This document shows, piece after piece, positions 21,176 to 35,166 of a stretch of DNA of 64,000 nt (its first letter is position 1; each line of letters opens with the position of its first letter). The notes under the pieces were generated by a model. It did no database searches. It was not told where the DNA came from and saw nothing but the letters and a program-made list of their open reading frames with translations. The DNA comes from Roseivirga sp. E12 (lineage in GTDB: Bacteria > Bacteroidota > Bacteroidia > Cytophagales > Cyclobacteriaceae), in the NCBI RefSeq assembly GCF_017592825.1, contig NZ_JAGFMD010000001.1, positions 868,001-932,000 on the forward strand, read 5' to 3'. The translations under genes were made by a program, and so were the position numbers.

Positions 21176-22125
21176 AAAAGTGCTTCGGCAATCTTTTTAG
21201 TCACCAGCGACTTACTCATGGTATAGTAGTGCAAGCAAGGCACTCCTGCTTCTTTTAATTCCTTAGACTGCTGGATGGCCCACTCTACTCCCACTTCTCT
21301 AGCCGTGGCATTGTCCTTGCATCCTTCGAGTGCATCTACCAAATCGTCTGGAAGATCTACATGGAAGATACTCGGCAATACATTCATTTGCTTAAGGGTT
21401 GTAATAGGTTTTAAACCTGGAATGATCGGCACATTGATATCGTTCTCTCGACACTTTTCAACAAAATCGAAATACTTCTTATTGTCGAAAAACATTTGAG
21501 TGACAATGTATTCAGCACCCATTTCAACCTTCATTTTTAGGTATTTCAAATCCGACTTCAAGCTTGGAGCTTCAAAGTGTTTTTCTGGATATCCTGCTAT
21601 ACCTATGCAAAAGTTCGTTTTGTTACGCTTAACTTCCTCATGCAGGTAGGCACCATCGTTTAGATCTAACACTTGTTGTAATAGATCACTGGCATATGAG
21701 TGTCCATTAGGATCTGCCTCAAAACGACCTTCAGACTTAATCGCGTCTCCCCTTAGCACCAACACATTGTCAATGCCTAGAAAGTCTAAATCGATAAGAG
21801 CATTTTCGGTTTCTTCCTTGCTGAACCCTCCACATATGATATGAGGCACGGCATCAACTCCATACTTGTTGATAATAGCGGCACAAATACCAACCGTACC
21901 AGGGCGCTTCCTTGTGGAAACCTTTTCTAACAGACCGTTCTCTCTTTTCTTATATATGTACTCTTCGCGATGGTAGGTCACATCGATAAAAGGGGGCTTA
22001 AACTCCATCAGAGGATCGATAGCATTGAAGATACTCTGCACGCTCTCTCCCTTTTGTGGAGGAAGTATTTCAAAACTGAAGAGCGTCTTTCCCTTGGCCT
22101 TTTTTATATGTTCGATGACTTTCAT
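21172..22125 (-). CDS. metF: Methylenetetrahydrofolate reductase
   Basis: A 317-residue FAD-dependent TIM-barrel enzyme reducing 5,10-methylene-THF to 5-methyl-THF, the methyl donor for MetH. FSFEILPPQKG contains the catalytic Glu, DVTYH follows, and NVLVLRGD is the family signature. It lies 33 bases downstream of metH2 in the same orientation and so probably belongs to the SAM-riboswitch transcript. This makes a complete methyl-supply unit. Confidence 0.96.
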   Translation of the reverse strand: MKVIEHIKKAKGKTLFSFEILPPQKGESVQSIFNAIDPLMEFKPPFIDVTYHREEYIYKKRENGLLEKVSTRKRPGTVGICAAIINKYGVDAVPHIICGGFSKEETENALIDLDFLGIDNVLVLRGDAIKSEGRFEADPNGHSYASDLLQQVLDLNDGAYLHEEVKRNKTNFCIGIAGYPEKHFEAPSLKSDLKYLKMKVEMGAEYIVTQMFFDNKKYFDFVEKCRENDINVPIIPGLKPITTLKQMNVLPSIFHVDLPDDLVDALEGCKDNATAREVGVEWAIQQSKELKEAGVPCLHYYTMSKSLVTKKIAEALF

Positions 22126-22158
22126 AAGTGTCTTAATTCTAAGGAGTAGTGTGAATAT

Positions 22159-25100
22159 TTAGATATCGTAACTAAGATTTGGAGCTAACCATTTTTCAGC
22201 TTTCTCTAAGGAGAAGCCCTTTCTACTGGCGTAATCTTCCACTTGATCTTTTTCAATTTTACCTAAGCCGAAGTATTTGGCTTCTTCATGCATGAAATAG
22301 AAGCCTGAAACCGAAGAAGCAGGATACATAGCGAAGGATTCTGTGAGACTAATTCCAGTATTTTTTTCAGCCTCTAGTAAAGAGAAAAGAGTCTCTTTCT
22401 CCGTATGATCTGGACAGGCCGGGTATCCCGGTGCAGGTCTAATGCCTTGGTAAGCCTCTTTGATCAAAGTATCATTGTCAAAAGACTCATTGGCGGCATA
22501 TGCCCAAAGCTCTTTTCTAACCTTCTCATGCATTAGTTCAGCGAAAGCCTCTGCAAGACGATCAGCCACAGCCTTGATCATTATAGAGTTATAATCGTCA
22601 TGATCCTTTTCGTATTTCTCGATCAATGATTCGATACCAATGCCAGCAGTGACCGCAAATGCTCCCATGTAATCATGTTTACCAGTTTCTTTAGGTGCTA
22701 CAAAATCAGCTAATGATAAATTGGGTAATCCGGCACCCTTCTTTCCTTGTTGGCGTAGCATATGGAAAGTCTTCAGTACCTCCTGACGAGATTCACCTGT
22801 ATATATTTCCACGTCATCTCCAACAGCATTAGCTGGGTAAAGCCCTATGACCGCATTGGCATAGAGCGAGTCTTTCTCGATGATCTCGTCCAAAACACGT
22901 TGAGCATCTTCAAAAAGCTTCCGAGCCTCCTCCCCAACAACTTGATTATCAAAAATTGCTGGATACTTCCCCTTCAACATCCATGTATTGAAAAATGGAG
23001 TCCAATCTATGTAATGACGAATTTCTTGAATTGAGTAGTCTTTAAAGACCTGATTACCCAATTGTCTAGGCTTCGCAAATTCCTTGGTGTCCCAATCTAC
23101 TTTGACTTTATTCTTCTGAGCATCAGCAAACGGAATATAGTTTTTGACTTGCTTACGGTTTGCGTGATCTTCTCTTAGCTTGGCATATTGTTCTTTGGTT
23201 CTACCATGAAACTCCTCATAAGTCTCTTTACTGATTAATTCTCCAGCTACTGGAACACTTTTGGAAGCATCTAAAACATGCACAACTGAACCTGAATAAA
23301 CTGGATCGATTTTAACGGCTGTATGAATTCTGGATGTAGTCGCTCCACCAATCATGAGCGGAAGTTTCATGTCTCTACGTTCCATTTCTTTTGCTACAGT
23401 GACCATTTCATCCAACGAAGGCGTGATGAGGCCACTGAGGCCTATGGCATCAACATTCTCTTCAATAGCCTTGTCTAGAATCTTATCGGCTGGTACCATA
23501 ACCCCCATGTCGACAATATCATAGTTGTTACAAGCCAGCACTACGCCTACAATGTTCTTTCCTATATCATGAACATCTCCTTTTACTGTTGCTAACAGTA
23601 CCTTGCGAGCCCCCTCTAAATCTCCCCCTAAGGGTGAGACTTTTTGCAGAGCAGTTTTTATTTCTGACTCAACCCAATCTATGTCAGCCAAGACTTCATC
23701 ATTGGTAAACCTGATAACACTAAAACCTTGCTCTTCTAGCCACGCTGTTCTCACCTCATCATTCTCCGCAACATCAGGTAATTGATGAATACCACCATCC
23801 ACTTCTACAACTAAAGCCCTAGTCAGACATACAAAATCTGCTATATACTGACCTATTATATGTTGTCTTCTAAACTTATAGCCGTCCAGTTGTTTGTTTC
23901 TCAGTCTTTCCCAAAGTACTGATTCAGCTAAAGTTTCTTTCTTTTTAAGCTCTCTCACGAATTCCTTCAAACGCCTATAGAGCATTGGGTCTGCTGTTTG
24001 ATATGCAGGCTTGCCGTCCTCCCTCTTGGGGAGGATTGAGGAGGGGCGATTTTTTCGTTTCTCCTCCTCTAAATATGGAAGAAGATAGGCCACGGCTTTT
24101 TTCATAACCCGAGCACTCTTTACTACCTGCGGTAAAAACATTTTGCCACTTCCAAAAAGATCACCTACTACATTCATCCCATCCATCAATGGACCCTCAA
24201 TCACATGCAGAGGCTTTTCATGCTGTTGCCGAGCTTCTTCCGTATCTATCTCAATAAACTCAACAATACCTTTAACTAAAGCATGCTCCAGTCTTTTGGC
24301 AACAGGTTCTTTTCTCCATGAATCGTCCTTTACCTGCTTTTTTCCATCACCTTTTACAGTTTCAGCAAATTCAAGTAGCCTTTCGGTGGCATCAGACCTT
24401 CGGTTTAACAAAACGTCTTCAACACGCTCTAATAGGTCCTTGGGAATATCATCGTATACCTCCAGCATTGTCGGATTAACAATACCCATATCCATACCTT
24501 CCTTGATGGCATGATATAGAAAGGCTGAATGCATTGCTTCACGTACAGGATTATTGCCGCGAAAAGAGAATGACACATTAGAAACGCCCCCACTCACATG
24601 TGCTCCTGGTAAGTTTTCTCGAATCCACCGCGTAGCGCGAAAGAAATCAGTAGCATTGTCATTATGCTCTTCAATCCCGGTAGCTACTGGAAATATATTA
24701 GGATCGAAAATGATGTCTTCCTTAGGGAAATTAACCTTGTCCACTAGGACTCTATAAGACTTCTCGCAAATCTCAATTCTACGCTCATAGGAATCAGCTT
24801 GGCCGTCTTCATCAAAAGCCATCACAATGACAGCAGCACCATACCGCTTAACCTTTTGCGCCTGCTCAATAAACTTTTCTTCTCCTTCTTTCAGCGAAAT
24901 TGAGTTTACAACTCCCTTTCCTTGAATACATTTAAGCCCCGCCTCGATGATCTCCCACTTAGAAGAGTCTATCATAATTGGAATGCGAGCGATGTCTGGT
25001 TCAGCGGCAATTAAGTTCAAAAATTTCACCATTGCCTCTTTACCATCGAGCATTCCTTCGTCCATATTGACATCAAGGATCTGTGCTCCTCCTTCCACTT

Positions 25101-25266
25101 GATTTCTCGCCACTTCGAGCGCTTCATCATATTTTTCCTCTTTGATAAGTCGTGCAAACCTTAGAGAACCTGTAACATTGGTTCGCTCTCCAACATTGAC
25201 AAAGTTTGTCTCTGGAGTAACAATTAGCGGCTCAAGGCCAGAAAGTCTTAGTGTAACTCTACTCAT
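22159..25266 (-). CDS. metH: Cobalamin-dependent methionine synthase, folate/cap/B12/activation part, interrupted in frame by a DUF559 domain
   Basis: A 1035-residue second half of MetH transferring a methyl group from methyl-THF through cobalamin to homocysteine. Domains in order: pterin-binding barrel (about 15-300, [14 protein letters not shown]), helical cap (about 315-400, ending [30 protein letters not shown]), a foreign DUF559 domain (about 408-554), B12-binding fold with DVHDIG at 564-569 (cobalt-ligand His566), and the SAM-binding activation domain (about 690-1035, [15 protein letters not shown]). The start [14 protein letters not shown] at 25266 lies 4 bases after the metH1 stop; a longer frame to 25329 would overlap metH1. 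Without the insert the length would fit a split MetH. All visible catalytic motifs are intact. Confidence 0.95.
23605..24045 (-). mobile_element. In-frame DUF559 nuclease-like element inserted in metH2
   Basis: A 441-bp segment (147 codons) interrupts metH2 between the cap and B12 domains. It encodes a complete DUF559 (Vsr/PD-(D/E)XK-like) domain: [45 protein letters not shown], then [12 protein letters not shown]. Its ends are G/C-rich inverted repeats: the left end starts GCCCCTCCTCAATCC, and the complement of the right end starts GCCCCCTCTAAATCT, with 15 of 20 positions matching. Each end also contains a small hairpin. TCGC occurs on both sides (24046-24049 and 23605-23608), a candidate target duplication. 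The unit is coordinated here as the element plus one TCGC. Mobility is inferred. Confidence 0.7.
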
Positions 25267-25270
25267 CTGA

Positions 25271-26281
25271 TTAAGCTTCAATAAGGTTTTCGATAGGACG
25301 TGGTTGATGTTTTGAAGCGACCTCTGCAATCATTCGAATATGATCAGGTGTAGTTCCGCAACATCCTCCTACAATATTTAAGAAGTTGTCTGACAAGAAG
25401 CCATCGATTAACTCGGCCATCTCTTCTGGAGATTGGTCATACTCACCAAACTCATTAGGTAACCCAGCATTCGGGTGTGCACTAACATGGAACGGGGCCT
25501 TTTGGGCAAGCGTCTGTAAATAAGGCCTCAGCTGCTCCGCACCTAACGCACAGTTCAGGCCAATACTTAACAGAGGTATATGTGATAGAGAGACTAAGAA
25601 TGCCTCCGTAGTCTGCCCCGACAGAGTTCTTCCACTAGCATCCGTAATGGTACCCGAAACCATTACCGGCCACTCTTGCTCTCTTTCGTCATACACTTCT
25701 TGGATGGCAAAAACTGCGGCCTTGGCATTTAGAGTATCGAATACTGTTTCTACCAATAAGATATCCGCTCCTCCATCTAACAATGCTTCTGCCTGTTGTT
25801 TATATGCCCTTACAAGATCGTCAAAGGTGACCGCGCGAAAGCCCGGGTCATTGACATCTGGAGAAAGAGAAGCAGTTCTATTTGTAGGTCCCATTGACCC
25901 TGCCACAAACCTTGGTTTATGTGGCTCCCGAGCTGTAAATTCATCCGCTACTTCACGAGCAATCTTGGCAGATTGATAGTTGATATCGTATACTGCATCT
26001 TCCAAGTGGTAGTCCGCTTGGGCTATAGTTGTACCACTAAAAGTGTTGGTTTCTGCTATATCCGCACCTGCATCATAGTAAAGGCTGTGAACCTCTCTGA
26101 TTATATCAGGTCGCGTTATGGAAAGTAAATCATTATTCCCTTTCAAGGGATGTTCATGATCCTTAAATCTTTCTCCTCTGAAATCCTCCTCTTCTAAGGA
26201 ATGCCTTTGAATCATGGTACCCATCGCACCATCTAACACTAATACCCTTTCTCTAAGGGCTTCTTGAATCTTTGTTGCCAT
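25271..26281 (-). CDS. metH: Methionine synthase homocysteine-binding subunit (split MetH N-terminal part)
   Basis: A 336-residue homocysteine S-methyltransferase-type barrel corresponding to the first domain of Met[11 protein letters not shown] begins the fold, and the zinc-binding cysteines are in [11 protein letters not shown] and [11 protein letters not shown]. It binds and activates homocysteine for methylation by methylcobalamin held on metH2. The stop is 4 bases before the metH2 start, so the two halves are translated side by side. The gene starts 17 bases after the 3' strand of a SAM-I riboswitch. Separate genes for the two halves are normal in many Bacteroidota. Confidence 0.95.
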
Positions 26282-26298
26282 CCTTTTTTATTATGGCG

Positions 26299-26426
26299 TA
26301 TCAAGAAAGTTGGAGAGTTATCTATCCTCATCTTTTCCTCGATGGCTCGAGGCTAGGAGTTAGCACCAGGTATTACCCAGGTTGCTAAGACATCTTAGGG
26401 CCTAGTCCCTCCGTCTTTCTTGATAA
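26299..26426 (-). promoter_or_regulatory. SAM-I (S-box) riboswitch
   Basis: Read on the minus strand, TTATCAAGAAAG (26415-26426) pairs with CTTTCTTGATA (26299-26309) as helix P1. Between them lie the S-box core pieces GGAGGGACTAGGCCCT, then TTAGCAACCTGG, then CCTGGTGCTAACTCC. A P4-like hairpin follows, CCTCGA/TCGAGG with a GCCA loop. It precedes metH1-metH2-metF. No U-tract terminator lies between P1 and the ATG 17 bases on, which suggests control of translation initiation or another mechanism rather than simple intrinsic termination. Confidence 0.92.
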
Positions 26427-26475
26427 GCACTGCAAATAAAATGATTTAAGCTAAATACTTTACAGAGTTTCCTGA

Positions 26476-27195
26476 TTATTTCAAGGAATACATCAGTTTC
26501 ATACTCAAGTTGAGTGAAGGGACAATTCCATTAAACTCTTCATCGTAATTTCTTCCGTACATACGATCAAAGTTCTTGGGCCTTCTACTATCTGGCGTGT
26601 AATCTTGATTGACGAAACCCACAGCACCGGACATTTCAATATTTAAGGACCCAATTAACTTGGCTATAAACCCTAGGTTCCAACGAATACCAATTTCTTG
26701 CCTAGAGACTCCATAAGTTGCCTTCTCAAAATACTCACAACCGTTATTACAGTCTATTCTGAAGATTCTCGTCCTGTCGAAATTGATCTCATTGAAAAGT
26801 AGTTCAAAACCTATAAAAGGTAAGATAGATGAGTTTTGTCCATCACCATAGAACCAACTACTCATCCCAGAAAGGTTCCTGGTTTCACTCGCGTACATTT
26901 TCAATGTGATAGCACTTTTAAACCCTGATTTATCAGCAAAATAAATCGCATCATCCTCAAAAACGTCCCAACCTTTGACCAAGCCATACTTGTACTCAAC
27001 ACTAAAGTTTTCACCAATTCGGTGCTCCAATGCTGCCGTATATGCAGGGAACCTCCAGGCTAGTTGCGTGGGTACGATCTTGATAGCAAATCTCGGTCTA
27101 ACAAGCTGACTATCCCTTTCAACCTCAAAATACTCTTGAGCGTGCAGGTTAAAAGCCAGCAAGGTTAAGATGACAAACAGAACGCTTCGTGCCAT
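26476..27195 (-). CDS. Hypothetical outer-membrane beta-barrel-like protein
   Basis: A 239-residue product with a signal peptide (MARSVLFVILTLLAFNLHA). Many amphipathic strands with aromatic ends (FSVEYKYGLVKGW, SAITLKMYAS, LPFIGFELLFNEI) and the final strand LNLSMKLMYSLK suggest an outer-membrane barrel of the DUF3575-like kind. A CNNGCEYF segment could form a disulfide. It starts one base after the stop of an LVIVD-like lipoprotein gene, forming a three-gene envelope operon. Function unknown. Confidence 0.65.
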   Translation of the reverse strand: MARSVLFVILTLLAFNLHAQEYFEVERDSQLVRPRFAIKIVPTQLAWRFPAYTAALEHRIGENFSVEYKYGLVKGWDVFEDDAIYFADKSGFKSAITLKMYASETRNLSGMSSWFYGDGQNSSILPFIGFELLFNEINFDRTRIFRIDCNNGCEYFEKATYGVSRQEIGIRWNLGFIAKLIGSLNIEMSGAVGFVNQDYTPDSRRPKNFDRMYGRNYDEEFNGIVPSLNLSMKLMYSLK

Positions 27196-35071: not shown

Positions 35072-35166
35072 TAATTTCCTTCCCTAGGGAAGGTGTCCGA
35101 AGGACAGAAGGGGGTTTTACAGTTGAATTAGAGTCTTACCCACAACCCCCAGCGGGGATATTTTTT
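35072..35166. repeat. Intergenic palindromic element with nested G/C-rich hairpins
   Basis: The stretch contains CCTTCCCTAGGGAAGG (hairpin), TGTCCGAAGGACA (hairpin), then AGGGGGTT matched about 40 bases on by AACCCCC. It is non-coding and fills the gap between the COG2509 and tryptophan dioxygenase genes. In wording it recalls the G/C-rich termini of the DUF559 element in metH2, but homology is not established. Confidence 0.55.

What the first reader, a model, noticed from the sequence alone, without database searches (positions are those of the whole stretch)
23605..24045. DUF559 nuclease-like domain inserted in frame inside methionine synthase
Seen: metH2 contains 147 extra codons between cap (ending YLEEEKRKN) and B12 domain ([15 protein letters not shown]). 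They spell a full DUF559 domain with intact charged residues (LVVEVDG). Known: canonical MetH, such as E. coli, has only a short linker there. Inference: a nuclease-carrying element inserted in frame at a permissive linker; it persists because the protein still works, and the nuclease may be made only as part of MetH. There are no intein splicing residues, so it is probably not removed.
Basis: partly seen in the sequence, partly recalled or inferred. Interest (0 to 1): 0.88.

Follow-up and report, generated by a model that had tools for sequence, protein, structure and literature searches.

The report
Unspliced nuclease elements inside essential enzymes
A small DNA element with an intact nuclease domain sits in frame inside this bacterium's methionine synthase, and elements of the same kind sit inside other core enzymes of related bacteria with no sign of being spliced out, which points to an overlooked kind of mobile DNA.

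Summary
metH2 (22159-25266, minus) is one open frame with an intact DUF559 nuclease domain between its Cap and B12-binding domains. It is the only MetH found in the genome, and no MetE was found.

It is not an ordinary MetH domain. In the genus, 4 of 18 metH loci carry it, 2 keep only end-repeat sequence, and 12 lack it. On the trees each carrier lineage sits beside an empty relative.

It is not a one-off. One DUF559 lineage sits in frame inside MetH, IleS, LeuS, MetG, ValS, RecG, UvrA, MutS and others, often in the same gap. In 395 class genomes, 68 of 72 top matches lie in frames of 359 aa or more, none with a stop. The carrier is the only IleS or LeuS gene above cut-off in 14 of 14 genomes checked.

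Best reading: a homing-endonuclease-like element living as a permanent domain insert, an intein without splicing. In-frame residence and recurrence are shown; nuclease-driven homing is inferred. The inverted-repeat ends are clear for the family (86 of 133 above 99% of controls) but not significant for the window's own copy. Ten searches found no report of it.

The parts
22159..25266 (-). metH2: methionine synthase, folate, Cap, B12-binding and activation domains, with the in-frame insert
   Evidence: the only Met_synt_B12 match in the genome
23609..24047 (-). inserted element (439 bp) bounded by repeat-like ends
   Evidence: ends inferred from the repeat-like sequences, no close empty allele fixes them exactly
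24016..24047 (-). 5' end repeat (32 bp): outer tail plus inner palindrome
   Evidence: Its pairing with the 3' end scores 25, a score reached by 15% of control positions
23609..23640 (-). 3' end repeat (32 bp), approximate inverted copy of the 5' end
23647..23973 (-). DUF559 (PF04480) PD-(D/E)XK-type nuclease domain with D, E-x-D-G, H and D present
25271..26281 (-). upstream frame read as metH1, the homocysteine-binding half of the split methionine synthase
   Evidence: frame; identity from its sequence as I read it, not scanned with Pfam
26325..26429 (-). SAM riboswitch leading metH1-metH2
   Evidence: RF00162, 74.5 bits

Best explanation
The block is a selfish element that encodes a Vsr-type, homing-endonuclease-like nuclease (DUF559), usually between short palindromic inverted repeats, and lives as a lasting, translated insert in a tolerant loop of a core enzyme. 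Shown here: the insert is in frame, patchy among close relatives, recurs in the same gap of the same enzymes across Bacteroidota, belongs to a DUF559 lineage found almost only inside larger proteins, and is under purifying selection. Inferred: the nuclease, made as part of the host enzyme, cuts the empty allele of the conserved host gene, and repair copies the element in (homing). The essential host gene gives a conserved target and keeps the frame open. Where the nuclease is lost only the repeat peptides remain, as in G004 and G006. It works like an intein with a homing domain, except that nothing appears to be spliced out, so it can persist only where the enzyme tolerates a domain of about 110 residues on two flexible linkers.
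For: In the genus the insert-bearing metH genes do not group: own with empty G001, G018 with empty G003, G013+G015 with empty G016, and the empty ones share a conserved 13-residue linker. At similar host identity the inserts differ widely (G000-G013 56% against G013-G018 81%). Host and insert identity correlate at only 0.44 over 666 pairs. G018 and G006 metH are 71.7% identical outside the linker, yet share an exact 40-nt run over the 3' repeat unit; the next longest run is 23 nt. 68 of 72 class-wide top matches lie in frames of 359 aa or more, none with a stop, and 39 of the top 40 order-wide matches lie in frames of 436 aa or more. The DUF559 tree clusters by host site, 46 changes against a shuffled mean of 113. 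D, E-x-D-G, H and D are kept in 135 of 135 long-frame copies. dN/dS is about 0.05-0.12 in six pairs. The carrier is the only IleS (6 of 6) or LeuS (8 of 8) gene above cut-off. The profile matches PDB 3r3p, 'Mobile intron protein', E 2e-7.
Against: No cleavage or movement has been shown. The window's own end repeats are not significant alone (score 25, reached by 15% of control positions), nor are G018's (score 20); G013 scores 28 (6%) and G015 31 (2%). There is no co-conversion signal beside the insert. A single Flavobacteriales clade among the MetH inserts is not rejected (p-AU 0.061), so the insert tree partly follows taxonomy. The excess of 4-fold-site identity in inserts is weak (Fisher p 0.107, 0.028, 0.067). 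Insert-bearing metH genes of the genus share a K-R before the insert, which could mean shared descent. Free-standing DUF559 copies match 3r3p about as well. All profiles were built from in-gene copies.
Confidence: 0.6

Rival explanations
1. Old domain insertions (one in MetH, others in IleS, LeuS and so on), inherited vertically and lost many times, by deletion or by replacement with an empty allele. The nuclease has no homing role.
For: The five MetH inserts first seen form one clade (99/87). Within Flavobacteriales and within the own order, inserts often group by genus or family, and one Flavobacteriales clade is not rejected. Carriers of the genus share a K-R before the insert.
Against: Empty sisters of all three carrier lineages in the genus have the conserved 13-residue linker, so losses would have to restore it at least three times. 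Insert and host identity are poorly coupled. The 3' repeat unit is far better conserved than the host gene between G018 and G006.
Confidence: 0.22
2. A Rickettsia-palindrome-like repeat element that spreads by an unknown route; the nuclease domain is a passenger or spreads the repeat without site-specific homing.
For: Palindromic inverted ends in 86 of 133 long-frame inserts above 99% of controls. Repeat-only forms in G004 and G006. Insertions into many unrelated genes. Some genes carry two inserts.
Against: The same gaps are hit again and again (37 in the MetH linker, 11 and 5 at two IleS sites). The matching repeat unit is found five times in 19 genus genomes, four of them in metH (the pattern was made from the metH units, so other units are missed).
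Confidence: 0.12
3. A functional fusion: the nuclease gives the host a benefit such as defence or DNA repair, and placing it in a core enzyme ensures expression.
For: Purifying selection on the nuclease. DUF559 also sits in modification enzymes (Eco57I-like, type ISP, HsdM). The DUF559 protein VsrA of Caulobacter is predicted to act in mismatch repair (PMC12907096, passages).
Against: The hosts share no common function, presence is patchy, and sister species do without it.
Confidence: 0.05

Closest known systems
Rickettsia palindromic elements (RPE)
   Same: Palindromic elements inserted in frame in unrelated protein genes and translated, as described in the MITE review PMC10969869 (passages)
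   Different: RPEs are about 150 bp and code for a short peptide; this element is 439 bp, encodes a nuclease domain, and recurs at defined sites of defined enzymes
Inteins with a homing endonuclease domain
   Same: A nuclease domain carried in frame in conserved essential genes, patchy, recurring at the same site (general knowledge of inteins)
   Different: No intein/Hint family in the Pfam scan and, by eye, no splice residues at the ends; hosts carry it in loops and the protein appears to keep it
3r3p, 'Mobile intron protein'; recalled to be I-Bth0305I, a Vsr-fold phage homing endonuclease (paper not held)
   Same: Sequence kinship over the catalytic stretch, E 2e-7
   Different: That match covers 73 residues only, and free-standing DUF559 copies match about as well (E 2.8e-6); the intron context is recalled, and no intron is seen here
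Free-standing DUF559 / Vsr-like proteins such as Caulobacter VsrA
   Same: Same Pfam domain and conserved residues (PMC12907096, passages)
   Different: Stand-alone genes; in-gene copies mostly form separate branches and 100 of 135 have a T in an N-terminal 'TAD' stretch against 8 of 54 short-frame copies
REPIN/RAYT repeat systems
   Same: The G004 remnant has two inverted repeat units in one small insert; the comparison with REPIN is from recall and a search listing
   Different: No RAYT-type enzyme in the element and low copy number of the units searched

Membership tests
DUF559 (PF04480) | Profile match above the curated cut-off, with conserved D, E-x-D-G and H | tested here: met
   123.1 bits against cut-off 20.6; residues present
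Intein | Hint/intein splicing domain | tested here: not met
   Pfam scan of the whole protein lists seven families at E<=0.001, none an intein family
Intein | Removal from the mature protein | not testable with these tools
   Needs proteomics
Homing endonuclease element | Nuclease related to a known homing endonuclease | tested here: met
   3r3p at E 2e-7; that 3r3p is a homing endonuclease is recalled, the chain name says 'Mobile intron protein'
Homing endonuclease element | Cuts the empty site and is copied into it | not testable with these tools
   Indirect signs only; the co-conversion test was negative
Rickettsia palindromic element | Palindromic element inserted in frame in unrelated genes | tested here: met
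   For the family. For the window copy alone the inverted ends are not significant
Rickettsia palindromic element | About 150 bp with a short peptide only | tested here: not met
   439 bp with a nuclease domain
Group I or II intron | Catalytic intron RNA | tested here: not met
   Rfam scan of 22000-27000 lists only the SAM riboswitch
Insertion sequence | Encoded transposase | tested here: not met
   No transposase family among the Pfam matches of metH2
Insertion sequence | Target-site duplication | tested here: inconclusive
   No empty allele close enough to read the junction; the linkers differ
REPIN/RAYT | RAYT (HUH) enzyme linked to many dispersed repeat pairs | tested here: not met
   No such domain in the element. 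The CCCCTCCT palindrome has six sites in the genome, three of them beside one free-standing DUF559 gene

The most novel reading that the evidence does not exclude
A previously unrecognised class of mobile element, in effect an intein without splicing: a Vsr-type nuclease between palindromic repeats that homes into defined loops of core enzymes (MetH, IleS, LeuS, MetG, RecG and others), is translated as a lasting domain of the host protein, and uses host essentiality to keep its own frame open, with a cycle of gain, decay to a repeat scar, and regain across Bacteroidota.
Probability: 0.5. Interest if true: 0.93.

Novelty: new variant of a known kind. Interest (0 to 1): 0.86.

Why it matters
Selfish nucleases inside essential genes are generally taken to need a way out of the product, by intein or intron splicing (general knowledge). 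Here one lineage appears to do without, by residing in loops that tolerate a domain of about 110 residues. That offers a natural experiment in domain insertion for methionine synthase and tRNA synthetases, a possible source of new multidomain proteins, and a map of insertion-tolerant loops for protein engineering. It also gives the DUF559 family, still named a domain of unknown function in Pfam, a biological role that can be tested directly.

Tried and rejected
Artefact or frameshift: rejected (one open frame; same site filled in separate assemblies). Ordinary MetH domain: rejected by its absence from most of the genus. Intein: no intein family. Intron: no Rfam match. Ribosome bypass or RNA-level removal: thought unlikely, since removal would not need a stop-free in-frame length, yet none of the 72 class-wide matches has a stop; not tested directly. 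Internal start giving a free nuclease: the possible Met is not conserved. Dispersed REP family in this genus: not supported for the units searched. Co-conversion tracts beside the insert: looked for, not seen. Transfer between orders: not claimed, since one Flavobacteriales clade is not rejected. In that test I put the Nitrotoga MAG contig L149 and the unclassified L125 in the Flavobacteriales group by eye.

End repeats: the first control used block-shuffled flanks and random positions that could overlap inserts. I repeated it with 1000 positions kept away from DUF559. There 86 of 133 long-frame inserts and 22 of 52 short-frame copies exceed the 99th percentile (102 and 28 exceed the 95th), but the window copy does not exceed even the 95th. 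Four of 189 domains were left out for short flanks.

Pair L185/L186 (insert 95%, host 79%) was set aside as evidence of transfer because both frames are unusually long and may hold other insertions in the compared part; it is still one of the six dN/dS pairs. Two further pairs gave saturated dS. Duplicate domains were dropped before counting (201 rows to 189). Site labels come from text patterns and miss some members (for example L135 and L169 were left as 'other').

Structure: one AlphaFold model of the Cap-insert-B12 stretch (mean pLDDT 66.6, pTM 0.50; nuclease blocks 70-91; under 50 in residues 1-10, 28-32, 81-96 and 222-228). A model of the nuclease alone and all fold searches could not be run.

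Literature: ten searches. Judged by titles and abstract starts, none of the listed papers reports in-frame DUF559 inserts; 'DUF559' itself occurs in 14 held papers. Only passages of PMC12907096 and PMC10969869 were read. The library is open-access papers only.

Full report
What is there. metH2 (22159-25266, minus strand) is one uninterrupted frame of 1035 aa. Pfam reads it as folate domain, Cap, DUF559, B12-binding and activation domain, and it passes the methionine synthase cut-offs of NCBIfam. The upstream frame 25271-26281 reads as the homocysteine half, and a SAM riboswitch lies at 26325-26429. The genome has one Met_synt_B12 match, this gene, and no match to the MetE family PF01717, a search that rings in 10 of 14 control genomes. 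MetH is therefore probably needed, and probably works.

Anatomy of the block. Judged by its ends, the element runs from 24047 to 23609. Each 32-bp end is an outer tail plus an inner palindrome, and the two look like inverted copies of each other. For this copy alone the pairing is not beyond chance: its score of 25 is reached by 15% of 1000 control positions; G018 scores 20, G013 28 and G015 31. For the family it is clear: 86 of 133 long-frame inserts exceed the 99th percentile of controls, 53 exceed the highest control, and the median is 40 against 20; of 52 short-frame DUF559 genes 22 exceed the 99th percentile. In translation the ends become Pro/Gly-rich linkers.

Distribution in the genus. 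Of 19 genus genomes searched (own included), 18 gave a metH2 locus. Four carry DUF559 (own, G013, G015, G018), two have only end-repeat sequence in the same linker (G006 one unit, G004 both), ten have a 13-residue linker and two a 21-residue linker. On MetH trees built without the linker, own pairs with empty G001 (100/100 in both trees), G018 with empty G003 (99/95 protein, 84/97 DNA), and G013+G015 with empty G016 (95/98 protein, 99/97 DNA). The protein tree of 21 rows, which includes carrier G095 of another genus, needs at least four changes. The 13-residue linkers of the empty genes are alike. The simplest account is repeated gain at one site, with decay.

Not tracking the host. G000 and G013 inserts are 56% identical while the flanking MetH parts are 81 and 90%; G013 and G018 inserts are 81% with flanks of 79 and 91%. 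Over 666 pairs of MetH-linker carriers, insert and host identity correlate at 0.44. G018 and G006 metH are 71.7% identical outside the linker over 2649 nt, yet share an exact 40-nt run over the 3' repeat unit; the next longest shared run is 23 nt. In 19 genus genomes a pattern made from that unit is found five times, four of them in metH; more diverged units would be missed. Results that do not help: the excess of 4-fold-site identity in inserts is weak (p 0.107, 0.028, 0.067), there is no co-conversion signal, and one Flavobacteriales clade among the MetH inserts is not rejected (p-AU 0.061).

A family with many hosts. PF04480 matches 99 of 148 genomes of the family, mostly in short frames but with a set in long ones. 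Reading those showed DUF559 in frame inside MetH, LeuS, IleS, type ISP and Eco57I-like modification enzymes and HsdM, and fused at an end of N-formylglutamate amidohydrolase, histidinol dehydrogenase, inositol phosphatase, QueG and a methyltransferase. A profile of ten in-gene copies (A1) puts 39 of its top 40 matches in 390 order genomes in frames of 436 aa or more. A profile of 73 (A3) gives 72 matches at E<=1e-43 in 55 of 395 class genomes; 68 are in frames of 359 aa or more, four in frames of 129-235 aa, and none has a stop. Both profiles were made from in-gene copies and so select that lineage; the point is that the lineage is nearly always part of a larger protein. Pfam confirms further hosts: RecG, MetG, UvrA, ValS, CoA transferase, CinA, MutS, a MeaB/methylmalonyl-CoA-mutase protein, and a MetH with two inserts.

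Same sites again and again. Of 189 distinct DUF559 domains in fetched loci, text patterns place 37 in the MetH Cap-B12 linker, 16 in IleS (11 shortly after WFDSGAMPYAQ, 5 at a second site), 13 and 5 at two LeuS sites, 6 in RecG, 4 in MetG, 3 in the MetH activation domain, 3 in UvrA and 1 in the MetH homocysteine domain, with 47 other long frames and 54 short frames. These counts reflect how the loci were chosen. The tree of all domains clusters by site (46 changes, shuffled mean 113), which related hosts alone could partly cause. The three free-standing copies of the window's genome fall on other branches than its MetH insert.

The hosts must work. In 6 of 6 genomes with an insert in IleS and 8 of 8 with one in LeuS, the insert-bearing gene is the only one above the family cut-off. 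The AlphaFold model of Cap-insert-B12 is of moderate quality (mean pLDDT 66.6); it shows the nuclease as its own folded unit (blocks 70-91), with low confidence in the two stretches that join it (residues 81-96 and 222-228).

The nuclease is kept. D, E-x-D-G, H and the following D are present in 135 of 135 long-frame copies. Of these, 69 came from the scan, whose patterns partly ask for these residues. Of the other 66, 60 fit a stricter pattern, and the six that do not still show E-x-D-G-x-x-H. Insert dN/dS is about 0.05-0.12 in six pairs, two of them with dS above 1; host values are 0.03-0.11 in five of these pairs and 0.24 in L185/L186. The profile matches PDB 3hrl (E 3.8e-33) and 3r3p, 'Mobile intron protein' (E 2e-7). 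Free-standing copies match 3r3p at E 2.8e-6, so this kinship belongs to DUF559 as a whole.

How it most likely works. Shown: in-frame residence, patchy and site-specific recurrence, repeat ends in the family, selection on the nuclease. Inferred: the host-borne nuclease cuts the empty allele and the break is repaired from the filled one; the mature protein keeps the insert. The role of the palindromes (end recognition, or hairpins at a break) is a guess. It resembles RPEs in being palindromic and in frame (PMC10969869, passages) and inteins in being a nuclease in a conserved gene, but it differs from each in a tested feature.

Noticed in passing
window 35078-35093: Another pyrimidine/purine palindrome with a one-sided tail (CCTTCCCTAGGGAAGG followed by TGTCCGAAGGACAGAAGG), unlike the DUF559 end repeats.
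   Followed up: no
window 26325-26429, minus strand: SAM riboswitch ahead of the metH1-metH2 pair.
   Followed up: yes
L003, around 1260-1990: A free-standing DUF559 gene of the same genome lies between two pairs of inverted palindromic units; three of the genome's six CCCCTCCT palindrome sites are here.
   Followed up: partly
L140, L146, L181, L198: Single long frames that carry two DUF559 inserts each; for L140 Pfam shows both inside one MetH.
   Followed up: partly
L064, L067, L071, L073 and L057, L062, L063, L069, L072, L075: DUF559 inside type ISP-like and Eco57I-like modification enzymes or related long frames, mostly on DUF559 branches other than the MetH/LeuS/IleS one.
   Followed up: partly
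G048:C3:46049-46429 (L076): A long frame with a DUF559 match and one TAA inside; could be a broken carrier gene.
   Followed up: no
L149 (Candidatus Nitrotoga MAG contig): A MetH with a DUF559 insert that groups with Flavobacterium inserts; the contig may be mis-binned.
   Followed up: no
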